This document shows, in pieces, positions 47,530 through 59,054 of a stretch of DNA of 64,000 bases (positions are counted from its first letter, which is position 1; every line of letters begins with the position of its first letter). Location of the stretch: contig NC_089985.1 of the NCBI RefSeq assembly GCF_036417845.1, positions 31,702,583 through 31,766,582 of the forward strand, in the 5' to 3' direction. The position numbers and the translations under genes were made by a program. Under the pieces are notes generated by a model. The model was not told where the DNA came from. It saw only the letters and a list, made by a program, of their open reading frames with translations, and searched no databases. This DNA comes from Apteryx mantelli. Its lineage: Eukaryota; Chordata; Aves; Apterygiformes; Apterygidae.

Positions 47530-49494
<1,965 letters not shown>

Positions 49495-52320: not shown

Positions 52321-55018
52321 GGGCCCGATCAGGCTGCAGATACACAAATCTCTGTGCTTTCTTCTGCTGCGGACATGGACCAAGTGCCCATAGCTACCAC
52401 AAGGGTACCCAGATACCAAGCACAAGGGGTGGCTGCTCTCTTCATACGCTCCCACGTGCACACCTCTGGGTGGCTGCACTCCTCTCTCCCCTCCTTGCCC
52501 AAACTGCATCACCAGCAGAAACCCTCACAGCCTTTTCCTGGGTAGAACAAGGCCTGGGCAATTTCCCCTCTGTTTGATGCTCCCATGCCTCTTTGACCTT
52601 GCTCTGACTCTGAACAGTAGTTTAATGTTGTGCCCTCTATAACATGGATAACAGTGGCTGAGCCTTGCAGAGATAACAGCAGAGCTTTGCAAGACCCAGT
52701 GAGCACCAAGAAAGTCCTCTGATGACAGACGAAGATAGACAATAGCAGCAGAAGCTTTATGGCAATTAATGATTGGAAATGAGCTAGATAGTGGAGTGCA
52801 GACAGCCATCAAGTTCCTGCTCAAGCCACCCAGAGGATTTGCTGCTCCAAAACAGCCAAAGTCGGGTTTATCGGCAACCAGACTCCCTGTAACAGCCGGC
52901 AGCCCTGGGCACTCGTTCAAAGCGTGGCAGTCTCTGCCTTTCCCATGTCACTAGTGCCACTCAAAGCAGCAGTAAAAAGGACATGGGGGAGTAACACATC
53001 ATGCAGCTCCCCTGGCTTAATGCATTCAGGAGCAGAGGGATTTATTCCCCAGGATTTGTTCCTTAGCATCCCTGGGGATCCGATGTCTGCAAAGGGGCAG
53101 AGACCTTTGCGCTATGTACTAACTGGCTTTGCAAGCGAGGGGTGCAAAATAGTTTGATTGCCCGTGGAGCTGAGCCACATGGTTAGATGCTCCAGTGTCT
53201 GGTAAGGTCTCCAACAAAGTGTAAGTCTGAGCTGGCGCTTTCTGCCATCAAGCTGTCCGAATCCCCCAGGGATACTCCACTGACTCATTAGCACTGAGTT
53301 CATGCTATGCTCCTCTTTCAGCAGGGACACAACACAAAGTGGCTTTTCACCACCCGGCTACTTATTTCATGAAACTTTCAGCAACTGACAGTCTCAGGGA
53401 CCTCCTTCAGATGTGACTGCAATTGCTCGTGCGCTCAAGAGAGAGATGCGCGGACTGAAAGCTCCCCTCTCCCCTCCCCAGGCATGTGCTGAATCCAAAG
53501 CTCGTGTGTAGGATGGATGCTCTCACACTCGCTTAAATATGGGAACACCTCCGCTCGCCTGTATCTTTCTGTATCTGCTCAGATGCAGAAGAGTTTAAAG
53601 CAAGGGATGCTCGGGCTGGGCACTGCTGTTTCTCTGCCCTTCGTCTACTACCAAAGGGGAGAGCGATCCCAGCTCTGCAAGCAGAGGAAAACCTCAGGCC
53701 ATCCTTTGACAGCACGTTGCCTGAAGCAAGCCCAGCTTCCAGAATCTAACAGCCAGATGTGTGAGGCCACGGGGTGGTAAGGAGGCCACCGACTGCGTGC
53801 AGGCTGCATTGCCCCGTCCACCCTGCCCTGGCGTGGGGCTGCTGCATGCCGCAGGCGCAGGCGGTTGAACCCAGTGGGAATCCCGGGGGCTGGTGGCAGG
53901 AGGCTGAGCGGGTCCCGGCTGGGGCTGCCTTCCCTCGCAGTCCCTGTAAGACAGCAAAGTGCTGAGCCACTGCCTTGCCATAGAGATTTCTGCACTCTTC
54001 CAACAAATGCATTTGCTGTGGAGGCCAGCAGCAGAGCAGCAATTAAGTGCAGAGGAGCTGCTGGGCAAAGACCCTCTGCTTCCAGGAGAAATGGTCGTCT
54101 CTCACCTCCCCAGAGCAGACGCTAATAGCACAGAGCGCTCCAGAAAGTTACTCAGCCCTGCGTGGAGAGCCGGCTGCCAGCCCGGCCGGCCTGGCTCCCG
54201 CGGTGCTGGGCTCAGCACAGAGCCGCCCTCCAGCACATCGCCCCCATCTTGGTCATTGAAGCTCCCTCCCATTAATTAGAAATGCTAAAATAACCAGGCA
54301 ACCATACTGCAGGCTGAAAGAGCAGGAATAAATCATAGAAAAGCGAGGAGTAACCAGGATGTTCCTGTTAGCCTTTCGTATCGGGGCTGCCCTGACTTTG
54401 GAGACATGAGCGGGCTGCAGGGTCCAGCGGGGTGGAAAGGCAGGGTCAGGACAGGATTGGGGCTCGTCCCCCCACATCAGCAGCTACAGCCCTGCGGGAG
54501 GAGTGTAACTCCATGACCAACCACCAAATGCTCGTCATGTCCCTCCTATTCACCTGCCCCCCTTTCCCTGGGATCAGGCCCAGAGACTCACACCGAAACC
54601 ATTCGGGACACGCGGCCCTGGCTCCAGCCCCGGGCGCAGAGGTGCCTTCCTGCTTGCCCGCACCCAAGGCAAGGCATGGAGCCCACACTGCTCCGGGGCG
54701 TTTAGGAAATCCTAAAGCGGGCAAGGATGGGCAGCAGGGCAAAGCACAAACCCCGTTAATGTGAACAAATGGTTCCTCACGGGTCAGCCAGGACACACGG
54801 ACAGCAGACAGGTCGGGCGCTCCCGACTGGGGCTCGCTGGGCATCGATGCTGGTCTCCAAATCTTAGCGGTGGAGCGTGGGTAACCATGGGGTAACTTAC
54901 CCCAGTGCGGTGGCGCCTGCGTGGCACGAAGGCTCTGCACAAGCACCGGGCACCAGCTGCCTCCAGCCGTGGGAAGCACCCCTGGCCAGGGCTCTCCCTA
55001 GGGGCGCATGCAGCAAAG

Positions 55019-55190
55019 CTGATTGGCTGCTGGGCACAGTGCCGCGAGGCTGATTGGCTGAGTGAGCACAGTGCCGCGAGGCTGATTGGCTGGGTGGCTA
55101 CAATGCCACAAAGGGCTGTGTGGCTACAATGTCGCGTGGCTGATTGGCTGGGTGGCCAGAGCACTGCGTGCTGATTGGCTGGGTGGCTAC
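55019..55190 (-). promoter_or_regulatory. Minisatellite of NF-Y/CCAAT boxes (five perfect sites)
   Basis: CTGATTGGCT occurs at 55019, 55050, 55082, 55140 and 55171, giving spacings of 31, 32, 58 and 31 bp. The reverse complement AGCCAATCAG matches the full NF-Y consensus, and it reads on the ZSWIM5 sense strand. The 58-bp gap holds a decayed unit in which the ATTGG core has been lost (around 55111-55120), so the array is about six units of 27-32 bp. NF-Y sites spaced near 31-32 bp (about three helical turns) are known in regulated promoters. The array lies 5.7 kb upstream of the ZSWIM5 ATG. It could be a distal enhancer, a promoter of an unannotated transcript, part of an old LTR, or a neutral minisatellite. 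Confidence 0.85.
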
Positions 55191-55429
55191 ATCCAGATGT
55201 GGCAATGAGAAAGGGAGGCGATGTCGCTGCGGGGGGCTCCTGCCCAGACCTGATGGGTCCCCGTCTCCCTTCATTTGGGTCGTGCAGCCCCACCTGGGCA
55301 GTGCACAGGCCACTGCAAGGATGAGTGTTTATCGCAACACCTGCGAGGATGAGACCTGCTGCTCTCTTCCCCTGCTACGTGCCACCTTTCCACCCAGGGA
55401 AACACTCCCATCTCCAAAAGAAAAGGCCT

Positions 55430-56100
55430 GATAAAACCAGCTTTGGCAAAAATCAACTCATTTCAACTCAATTTATAATATTTGTCCATGTGTCTATTAT
55501 TTCTGGTCTTTACAAAAGGTTTTACTATTTTGCCTGACTTACTGTTCTGTGATTCCTCAAATGCCTCTAAGAAACTCAGTGTCACATCTGCCATCTTCCA
55601 AGGCCACTTTCAGCAACAGGTTTCATGAGCCATAGCTCAGGAATTTGGAGCATCTGTGGCCATTCCCAGGTCATTTCTTACTGTTCATTTTAACAATTAA
55701 TTCTAAAGAAGTTTCCACTGGTACATCAATGTGAGGCAGTTCCTCTAGTGGGTCCTTTGTGAGAAAAAGGCTCCAGTCTGGGACATCTTCCGTAGTGAAA
55801 AAAACAACGAAAATCATTAACTTAGTTCTTTTATGGCTTTATCAGGGTTCTTTCTTTAGTTCAGGAATCATTCACCTTAAGTAAGGCTTTGTGTCTTTTT
55901 GGTATACATCACCATGCTCTTTAACAGAAGCTGCTCCATAGTAACAGCTGGGTCCCACACACTCTTCCACAGGAAATCAAGTTCATCCTTTTCCCCCAAC
56001 TAGTTGCTTTAAGAAGCAGTCAGTTATAATGGTGAAAAATGTAATTCCTCCATCTTGTGCCCTCATAACATTTTTAAATTAGCACCTGACTTTCTTATTC
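55430..56100 (-). other. AT-rich segment with a short coding-like remnant of unknown origin
   Basis: A sharp drop in GC sets this block apart from the flanks. On the minus strand a frame ending in TGA at 55671-55673 reads as plausible protein over about 43 codons from around 55800, including VPDWSLFLTKDPLEELPH and IDVPVETSLELIVKMN. Upstream of it the frame is interrupted. No family is recognised. It may be the decayed end of a retroposed gene or of a transposable element, or chance. Confidence 0.3.
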
Positions 56101-59054
56101 CAACTTAGACACTTTATGCCAGCTTTCCCAATGCCAGCCCAGGGTGTGCAGCGCCCCAAATGCCAGGTCCTGCTGCCCGAACCAGCCCTGCCAGTCCCTC
56201 ACATCGAGCCTGAGCGTCTCTAAACCACCTGATGAGAGAGCAGGACATGGCAGCTCGATGTTGTGGGAAACCAAGAACTGTGCCCAGCTAGGCTCGAGAA
56301 GAGATGGATGGAGAGAGAAACAGCAAATCTGCCCTTGCATTGCAGCCTGTTGCAAGAAGGAATAGCTTGCCATCTGCTTTCCTTGCAGTAGGGCAAGAAG
56401 AGGGGAGCCTGAGCTTTGACAAAGGTCCTGTGAACGCCTGGACCAGCTCAGGATCCAGCTCAGCCTTGGGCGTCTGATCCATGCTGCAAACCTGCATGTT
56501 CTGGGCCTCACATTTGGCTGGCCAGACACCTCTGTCCTGGGGTGCTGCGGTATTCATGGGGCTTTGTCTGCTCTCATGGGGCTCCTTCCAGCCTCTGGAT
56601 CAAAAAAGTAAATAACAGAAGCAAACTGTTCTCTCCATGCCACCTTTCATTGCTGGTGAACAAAGTTAGGAGCTATAGAACAGCAGTGTGGAGAAGTGGT
56701 TGTTTGGTTCCCGCACCACGATGGCCGAACCATGCCAGGGAGGTGAAGCCACACCAAGCTGCACCGTGGTGGCACCGCGCGTGGTGACAGGAGCTACAGG
56801 GGAGGCGGCGTGCAGAGGGAGACGGGGATGACCAGGGCCATATCAGACACGTTTCCTCGGCCCCACCTGCACCAGTCTCCAGCTCGGTGGCCACACTGGG
56901 GACACCAGTCACCAGAGCTGGGTCGTTTCTGCGGCTGCTTTCTCCGCTCTGCCCCATCTCCATGGGAGATCCTGCACCAAAACAAGCCTGCACCTAGTCA
57001 CCAGGGACTTCAGCAAGTCAGCCAAAGCCAGAGACAAGCTCTCCAGCTCTCCTTCCCTGGCTCCCAACCCGCGATGGAAATACGCGGCTGCCGTCCCCGG
57101 GCAGCGACATTCCCGCTGCTCCCGCACAGGCGAGAGGGGCCTGGCTGGGCTGGACTTGGGGGGCAGAAATGCAGCCGCCTGCATTTATTTTGCCTAACAA
57201 CAGTGATCTCTCTGTATATTTTCATTCTGTTTTCCTAGGCTCAGCTGCCTCCTCAATGAAATGTTTCCAAAGCAGCCCGGCTTGGCAGCACGCCAGCCCC
57301 GGCTGCCAGATGAATGGGTGGAGGAGGAGGGACCCATTCCTCTTCTTGACACAGCATCGCTGCACAAGAGGCCTCTGTTGACATTAGGACTGGCTGTTCC
57401 CCATCCCCCGAGAGGACCCTCCTGGCCTTGGTGGCAGCAGCGCGCAGGGCAAGGGCAGCAGGCTGCACGTGACGTGGCACCGGGGTCTGCCCTGCTCCTC
57501 CGAGGTGGTGGCAGAGCCGCGGACACGGGGTACCGCGAGGCATCCTGGCAGCAGAGCATCCTTCCTCTTCCCTCCCACCTCATGGCGATGATGGCTCGGG
57601 GGGGTCTTCCTGGCCCTGGGCTACCAAACAAAGCCTCCTGCTTCGTCCTCACCCCCTCTTTGACCCATGTGGATTTACACTTGGACACTCGTTCCCAGCC
57701 TTGCACAGCTCTGGACAGCAAATTGTTTCTCTCCCTTTAAATCTTTCATCTTTCTTTTTAGTTGAAAACGCCTTGCCCAGGAGAGTTGCACCACAGCCTG
57801 GGCTCTGTGGGGCAGCAGGACATGATCAAATGTCCCCAGCAGCCACCAGGGACAAGAGGCTGTGCTGGCCAGCGGAGCAGCCCCTGGTGACAATAATATA
57901 CAGCCTGGCACCGGCTTCACCTAAACCCTGGCCGTAACGCAGACACACAGGACTGCCCCAGCATCCCTGCAGCCTCATCGCAGCCGCAGGCTAGCTCCTC
58001 CCCAGGAGCCTGTGCTGTGCCCCCCAGCCTGGCTGGCCCCACGGCAGCCGCAGGACACCCGGGGCTGGTCGCGGGCTGCAGCGGGGAGACGTCCCCCTTC
58101 GCTCTGCATGCGGAGGTTTTGCATAGAAGCAGCCCTACATGCCCACCGGGTCACCCAGCAAGACCCACAGCAGCCCCATCCCCTTCTCCAGGCACCCATC
58201 GCAATATCACCTCCCTTCCAGCCCCCCAGCTTTAGGAGCCATGCAAGGGAGAGGATGTGGAGTTTAACAAAAAGGCTGAGGAAGCATTTGGAGATAAAAG
58301 TCATCAGCATTCTTCCAATCTGCACCTCTCACCGCTGGCCGGCTCCTCTGGCATCTCCACAGCCACTGTGGTCCCTGGAAGGTTTCCAGCTGCCACGGCC
58401 ACGCTGGTGGGAGCATGTATTAACCAAGACTGGGAGAGCTTTGCTGTTCAGAGCCGCATTTCAATATCAAACGCACAGCAAATCTTCCCGTTTCCCTTTC
58501 CAGACCAGAGGGACGAAGCTCATCAAGAAACTTGCAGCTGCTTAAGAAAGAAGAAAAAAAAAAAAAAACTTACTGCAATTCAGCAACTTTGCTGAAGTCG
58601 CTCTGGGAGACAGCGCAGAGTTGGTCTGCAGTGCAGGGAGAGCCAGTAACGAACGGAGCAGCCACTGGATCCGGGACTCAGAAAATACAGCTGGTGAGGC
58701 CTCCCCTACCTTCTCTGCCCCGATAGGGGTCAGGTAGCTTGAAATCCTCCCTGATAGACCCGAAACCTCTAGCGAGGATGGAGATGCCACCCTGTGCTCC
58801 AGCCAGAGCCTTGCCGTTGCTTCGCTGCATGGGACACCCATGGTTCTGTGTGCTGCCAACAGCTCGCTCCTCTCCCTGCAGCGGGCTCTGAGCTGCGGCT
58901 GTACGGTGAGTGAAACCCGGGAAGGACTGATGCCCAAATCTTTCCAGGCTTTGGGATTTTGGAGACACTCTGCATGCTTTATAGGGAGCATGACCCAGAA
59001 AGGGCCTTTCTGGGCCCTCCCAGCAGAGGCTCACAGTGCACCACTCTCCCCACT

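What the first reader, a model, noticed from the sequence alone, without database searches (positions are those of the whole stretch)
55019..55190. Helically phased array of five perfect NF-Y (CCAAT) sites upstream of ZSWIM5
Five exact CTGATTGGCT copies with 31, 32, 58 and 31 bp spacing, the 58-bp gap holding one decayed unit. The conserved part of each unit is the NF-Y consensus AGCCAATCAG, while the linkers vary more. That pattern is what selection on binding sites would leave, or it marks a minisatellite that happened to amplify a CCAAT box. A spacing near three helical turns puts all sites on one DNA face.
Basis: partly seen in the sequence, partly recalled or inferred. Interest (0 to 1): 0.7.

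Follow-up and report, generated by a model that had tools for sequence, protein, structure and literature searches.

The report
CCAAT-box minisatellite upstream of ZSWIM5
A short tandem repeat upstream of a bird gene that looks like ZSWIM5 carries five perfect copies of a common transcription-factor docking site; it is real and apparently single-copy, but it looks like an ordinary minisatellite, of a kind reported to act as an enhancer at one human gene, and nothing here proves that it is used.

Summary
Window 55018-55191 is a degenerate six-unit minisatellite (about 32 bp per unit) with five exact CTGATTGGCT (NF-Y/CCAAT) cores at 55019, 55050, 55082, 55140 and 55171. The sixth unit lost its core by a 7-bp deletion. 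The array lies 5.65 kb upstream of a ZSWIM5-like start codon (name from recall plus synteny), outside the CpG island, and matches only itself in a 1.5-Gb genome.

The 58-bp gap is 5.5 helical turns, so the last two sites face away from the first three. Cores are invariant and linkers are not, but other minisatellites here show much the same contrast (0.132 against 0.136), so this is weak evidence of selection at most.

New here: CTGATTGG triplets occur at 11 further places plus a dispersed family, against none for the one control octamer answered. Three further control octamers did not complete.

Best reading: a minisatellite that amplified an NF-Y-compatible CCAAT box, like the human ABO minisatellite. 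Function is plausible but undemonstrated.

The parts
55018..55191 (+). whole minisatellite, about 32-bp period, 5.7 copies
   Evidence: TRF; one match in own genome at E 0.001
55018..55048 (+). unit U1 (31 bp), core CTGATTGGCT at 55019-55028
55049..55080 (+). unit U2 (32 bp), core at 55050-55059
55081..55113 (+). unit U3 (33 bp), core at 55082-55091
55114..55138 (+). unit U4 (25 bp), core destroyed by a 7-bp deletion (GCTGATT missing, GGCTG kept)
   Evidence: alignment
55139..55169 (+). unit U5 (31 bp), core at 55140-55149; linker differs most from the others
55170..55191 (+). unit U6 (partial, 22 bp), core at 55171-55180
48678..49365 (-). ZSWIM5-like exon 1 coding part (start codon at 49365; inferred GTGAGT donor after ...DNALQV+G), in a CpG-rich stretch at about 48.0-50.0 kb; the array's CCAAT reads in the sense of this gene
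   Evidence: no Pfam match; name from recalled sequence plus synteny

Best explanation
It is a degenerate, single-locus minisatellite. A stretch of about 32 bp that contained a full NF-Y-type CCAAT box (AGCCAATCAG in the sense of ZSWIM5) was duplicated in tandem to about six units, by slippage or unequal exchange (inferred). The units then diverged, and one lost its core by a 7-bp deletion. The five intact sites should be bindable by NF-Y (inferred), at spacings of 31-32 bp that are common in promoters shared by NF-Y and c-Fos. The most likely state is a by-product of minisatellite turnover with no maintained function, or at most a weak distal regulatory effect on ZSWIM5. Shown: array, units, deletion, position, one genomic match. 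Inferred: duplication mechanism, NF-Y binding, lack of constraint.
For: TRF array and units. Pairwise linker differences of 0 of 10 to 9 of 19 columns, as in an old minisatellite. Core-against-linker contrast like that of other minisatellites: 38 TRF arrays examined, 7 with ATTGG or CCAAT in the consensus and 31 without, mean 0.136 against 0.132, P 0.33; this array has 0.13, and by that unbiased rule its best 10-mer is GGCTGGGTGG, overlapping but not equal to the CCAAT core, because the deleted unit counts. 5 of 15 control arrays reach an invariant run of 12 or more in five of six units, while this array scores 11 by the same rule. One core deleted outright. Phase broken by the 58-bp gap. Not in a CpG island (o/e 0.46). 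No unusual DNA folding (z 0.20).
Against: The longest invariant run falls on a transcription-factor consensus, with column-shuffle P of about 0.001 and a more conservative P of 0.01-0.02. All five control arrays that reach 12 are less variable (0.05-0.36 of columns, against 0.44 here); of the 9 controls at 0.41 or more, one reaches 11 and the rest 3-9. Two of the seven arrays hold ATTGG or CCAAT without the NF-Y core; the five CTGATTGG-type arrays have 0.11-0.18, mean about 0.146. Strongly diverged arrays such as C105:96940 are not seen by TRF and so are missing. CTGATTGG triplets recur at 11 other non-dispersed places against 0 for the reversed octamer.
Confidence: 0.62

Rival explanations
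1. A working NF-Y-bound distal enhancer or alternative promoter of ZSWIM5, in the manner reported for the human ABO minisatellite: several NF-Y trimers bind, open chromatin and raise transcription from the CpG-rich promoter 5.7 kb away, with strength set by copy number.
For: Full NF-Y-type cores in one orientation at 31-32 bp, near the CCAAT-dimer peak at 31 bp (PMC4982600, passages and section 14); the ABO precedent about 4 kb upstream with allele-specific copy number and reporter effects (PMC2988417 passages); invariance of the core and the divergence-matched part.
Against: No functional data; contrast not above other minisatellites; two of five sites out of phase; array outside any CpG island; orthologous loci not available. 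For ABO itself, an abstract of 2021 (PMC8016878, listing and abstract start only) names the CpG-island promoter, a +22.6-kb site and an intron-1 site as regulators, and the word minisatellite does not occur in that paper.
Confidence: 0.28
2. The array is one member of a genome-wide class of NF-Y-core minisatellites that recur because selection, or a mutational preference for this core, favours CCAAT arrays in this bird. (Not exclusive of the other readings.)
For: 49 triplet matches: by their letters 25 in one dispersed repeat family and 24 in 12 separate places, against 0 and 0 for the backward control; 22 ATTGG at C2, 18 at C25, 17 at C36, 13 at C105:96940 with linkers in which TRF sees no repeat.
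Against: Only one control octamer was answered; all places were found by the core itself. In 214 kb of held sequence, 33 octamers with 4 G+C other than frames of the NF-Y core each form a triplet at one place (38 of 7762 in all); scaled naively to 1.5 Gb that would be about 30 places per octamer, although these stretches were not random and are likely richer in minisatellites than the genome, so an excess for CTGATTGG is not established. By the rule (4 or more boxes, gaps of at most 45) the ZSWIM5 array itself is not called a cluster.
Confidence: 0.2
3. A fragment of a transposable element or LTR with a repeated CCAAT enhancer, like human LTR12/ERV9.
For: LTR12 carries such arrays (PMC11853044 passages); this genome has a dispersed family with CTGATTGG at 31 and 39 bp.
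Against: The array matches only itself in the genome at E 0.001, with the tool's caveat that common words are skipped; window 53001-57500 has no match at E 0.01 to the 11 dispersed-family loci tested, of 25 rows; window 53500-57000 has no other strong match within the window.
Confidence: 0.03
4. The core serves another factor (NF-1 half-site TTGGC, or Y-box proteins) rather than NF-Y.
For: CTGATTGG is also the classical Y-box and contains TTGGC (recalled).
Against: Invariance covers the whole 10-bp length of the NF-Y matrix; no paired NF-1 half-site is kept in all units (alignment, by eye).
Confidence: 0.05

Closest known systems
Human ABO gene upstream minisatellite (CBF/NF-Y motifs, about 4 kb upstream of the start codon)
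   Same: Tandem minisatellite several kb upstream of a gene with a CpG-island promoter, units with a CCAAT/NF-Y site; distance here 5.65 kb
   Different: ABO has allele-specific copy number and reporter evidence (PMC2988417 passages; the original papers were seen only as references); here no binding, expression or polymorphism data. Unit length differs (43 bp recalled for ABO, about 32 bp here)
LTR12/ERV9 U3 tandem repeats
   Same: Repeated CCAAT boxes in short tandem units, NF-Y-bound (PMC11853044 passages)
   Different: About 41-bp units inside a retroviral LTR with about 5,000 copies (abstract start); this array has one genomic match and no TE similarity found
CCAAT direct dimers at 31 bp in NF-Y/c-Fos promoters
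   Same: Same-orientation CCAAT boxes at 31-32 bp (PMC4982600)
   Different: Those are promoter-proximal dimers; this is distal and minisatellite-born. The paper's methods say edge-to-edge while its discussion counts from the first C, so exact equality of 31 is uncertain

Membership tests
Minisatellite (VNTR-type tandem repeat) | Head-to-tail units of 10-100 bp at one locus | tested here: met
   TRF period 32, 5.7 copies; one match
Minisatellite (VNTR-type tandem repeat) | Copy-number polymorphism between individuals | not testable with these tools
   one assembly only
NF-Y-bound array (ABO type) | Full NF-Y consensus in the units | tested here: met
NF-Y-bound array (ABO type) | NF-Y occupancy and enhancer activity | not testable with these tools
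   no ChIP, ATAC or reporter data held
NF-Y-bound array (ABO type) | Cores under stronger constraint than linkers | tested here: inconclusive
   P 0.001-0.02 within the array; contrast equal to that of other minisatellites; invariant run at the upper end of equally variable controls, 1 of 9 reaching 11
Helically phased array on one DNA face | All spacings close to whole turns | tested here: not met
   phases 0, 0.95, 0, 0.52, 0.48 and resultant 0.20 at 10.5 bp per turn; 0.38 at 10.4 and 0.31 at 10.6
LTR12-like TE enhancer | Dispersed copies or LTR context | tested here: not met

The most novel reading that the evidence does not exclude
This bird genome carries a recurrent class of tandem arrays (12 places, up to 22 boxes each) whose common part is the full NF-Y core, kept in one orientation while linkers erode. 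Such arrays would have arisen separately and been repeatedly recruited or preserved as NF-Y platforms, and the ZSWIM5 array would be a small member.
Probability: 0.15. Interest if true: 0.7.

Novelty: new member of a known kind. Interest (0 to 1): 0.33.

Why it matters
If the array is bound, it is a further natural case, besides ABO, in which minisatellite copy number could tune a gene through NF-Y. The recurrence of CTGATTGG minisatellites in this genome is the wider point: it would let one ask whether minisatellites repeatedly supply NF-Y arrays, with several loci in one genome as replicates. The controls also show a trap: a conserved motif-like core within a minisatellite is not by itself a sign of selection.

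Tried and rejected
Coding repeat: rejected, because spacings of 31 and 32 are not multiples of three; none of the 5 window frames given to Pfam had a match, the ZSWIM5-like exon included. Structured DNA: z 0.20, 114 of 200 shuffles fold as well. CpG-island promoter at the array: o/e 0.46. TE origin: one genomic match, no similarity to the dispersed CTGATTGG family. MHC-type X-Y module beside the core: looked for by eye only, none seen. Viral collection: one contig holds a 27-bp repeat with CCAATCAG, taken as chance. Core-against-rest test across eight arrays gave 0.84-0.92 against 0.53-0.76, but units there were cut at ATTGG, so it is biased; in the unbiased control the arrays did not differ from other minisatellites. 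CR1 tail motifs: two patterns, none found in the window. Pfam on ten long frames near the C105, C25 and C36 arrays gave one sub-threshold GST_C_2 match, not pursued. Literature: no paper in the held library holds both ZSWIM5 and NF-Y; among the 20 listed of 57 papers, none looked from title and abstract start to be about bird NF-Y minisatellites.

Full report
Observation. The array was read directly. Exact CTGATTGGCT occurs five times in the 64-kb window, all within 55019-55180 on the + strand, spaced 31, 32, 58 and 31. TRF, which knows nothing of the motif, calls 55018-55191 as a 32-bp repeat with 5.7 copies and 72% matches. Alignment gives six units; unit U4 (55114-55138) is 25 bp long and lacks GCTGATT, so its CCAAT box was removed by a deletion, not by point decay.

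Setting. A minus-strand exon opens at 49365 with [11 protein letters not shown] and runs to an inferred GTGAGT donor after about 48678, in CpG-rich sequence. I recognise ZSWIM5 from recalled sequence; Pfam gave no family for this frame. On the far side of the array, a 441-aa frame with a glyoxalase domain (L028:7201-8523, HPDL-like) and two frames with CAF1 matches, one above and one below the Pfam cut-off (L029, TOE1-like), follow; the other 5 of the 8 frames scanned had no match. This fits the human order ZSWIM5-HPDL-MUTYH-TOE1 as I recall it; MUTYH was not looked for. The array is 5.65 kb upstream of the ZSWIM5-like start codon and about 16 kb from the HPDL-like frame (coordinates). It is not in a CpG island.

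Helical phase. At 10.5 bp per turn the five sites have phases 0, 0.95, 0, 0.52 and 0.48, with a resultant of 0.20 (0.38 at 10.4 and 0.31 at 10.6). The 31- and 32-bp steps are near three turns, but the 58-bp step is 5.5 turns. The first three sites share one face, the last two roughly the opposite one. 'All sites on one DNA face' is therefore wrong.

Is the core constrained? Within the array, 0 of 10 core columns and 15 of 23 other columns vary; the invariant run is 12 columns. Column shuffles give P 0.0012 (circular), and a null that throws the 16 changes at random gives 0.02. Leaving out CpG columns changes little (0.002 and 0.015), but leaving out U5 gives 0.024 and 0.062, and using U1, U2, U3 and U6 alone gives 0.086 and 0.19. 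The main control was other minisatellites of the same genome. Of 38 TRF arrays (period 20-50, at least 4.5 copies, under 90% matches) in the roughly 230 kb that I held, the 7 with ATTGG or CCAAT in their consensus have a best-10-mer minus rest contrast of 0.136 on average and the 31 others 0.132 (P 0.33); the ZSWIM5 array has 0.13, and its best 10-mer by that rule is GGCTGGGTGG, because the deleted unit lowers the CCAAT part. Limits of this control: the stretches were picked because they hold CTGATTGG arrays, two of the seven are not NF-Y-type arrays (the other five average about 0.146), and arrays too diverged for TRF are absent. In a second test, 5 of 15 control arrays reach an invariant run of 12 or more in five of six units, while this array scores 11; but all five are less variable (0.05-0.36 of columns against 0.44), and of the 9 controls at 0.41 or more, one reaches 11 and the rest 3-9.

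Elsewhere in the genome. The array with its edges (211 bp) matches only itself. A search for three CTGATTGG at gaps of 3-33 gave 49 matches, and 0 and 0 for the pattern read backwards. By their letters, 25 of the 49 belong to one dispersed repeat family (sites 31 and 39 bp apart); ten loci compared with L033 match it at 93.8-97.1% in two pieces that total about 2.7 kb, and none of these 11 loci matches the window around the array. The other 24 fall in 12 places: C2, C8 (this one), C13, C15, C17, C19, C25, C29, C35, C36 and two on C105. Some are large: 22 ATTGG at C2, 18 at C25 and 17 at C36. At C105:96940 there are 13 ATTGG in one orientation over about 420 bp, and TRF sees no repeat there. 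Three (C13, C19, C29) sit in CpG-rich, promoter-like sequence. These places were found by the core, so their core conservation cannot be used as evidence. Whether CTGATTGG forms more arrays than other octamers rests on one control octamer. Against an excess: in 214 kb of held sequence 38 of 7762 octamers with 4 G+C form a triplet; five of these are frames of the NF-Y core with 4-7 places each, the other 33 have one place each, which, scaled naively to the genome, would be about 30 places per octamer. The held stretches are not random, so neither number decides it, and the further genome-wide controls did not complete.

What is known. A minisatellite with NF-Y motifs about 4 kb upstream of the human ABO start codon, with allele-specific copy number and reporter effects, is described in PMC2988417 (passages), citing earlier papers that I saw only in reference lists. 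A later ABO paper (PMC8016878, listing and abstract start only) names other sites as regulators. LTR12 repeats carry 5-17 units of about 41 bp with NF-Y sites (PMC11853044 passages). Direct CCAAT pairs peak at 31 bp in c-Fos-bound promoters (PMC4982600, passages and section 14). In mammals NF-Y targets a 10-bp matrix centred on CCAAT (PMC6843132 passages). ZSWIM5 and NF-Y occur together in no paper of the library.

Verdict. The feature is real and correctly read, except for the phasing. It is a new member of a known kind: a minisatellite with NF-Y-compatible cores upstream of a gene. NF-Y binding is plausible, regulatory function undemonstrated, and selection not shown. The recurrence of CTGATTGG arrays in this genome is the most interesting lead and needs proper controls and other bird genomes.

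Noticed in passing
G000:C105:96672-97090 (L016): Thirteen ATTGG boxes in one orientation, 10 of 12 spacings 22-40 bp, with no TRF repeat over them. Other arrays lie at C105:88567 and C105:89834-89984 (six boxes at exactly 30 bp).
   Followed up: partly
L032 (G000:C2, around 171643914): 22 ATTGG boxes in one orientation over about 0.9 kb, spacing mostly 39-46 bp, next to CpG-rich sequence.
   Followed up: partly
L033 and 24 other rows: Dispersed repeat family with CTGATTGG at 31 and 39 bp spacing; ten loci match L033 at 93.8-97.1% over about 2.7 kb. Nature not determined, only observed.
   Followed up: partly
L001:1-91 (viral-collection contig IMGVR_UViG_3300017706_001303): A 27-bp perfect repeat that contains CCAATCAG; taken as coincidence.
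   Followed up: partly
window 48136-49494, - strand: ZSWIM5-like exon 1 with long Ala/Pro/Gly runs in GC-rich sequence.
   Followed up: no
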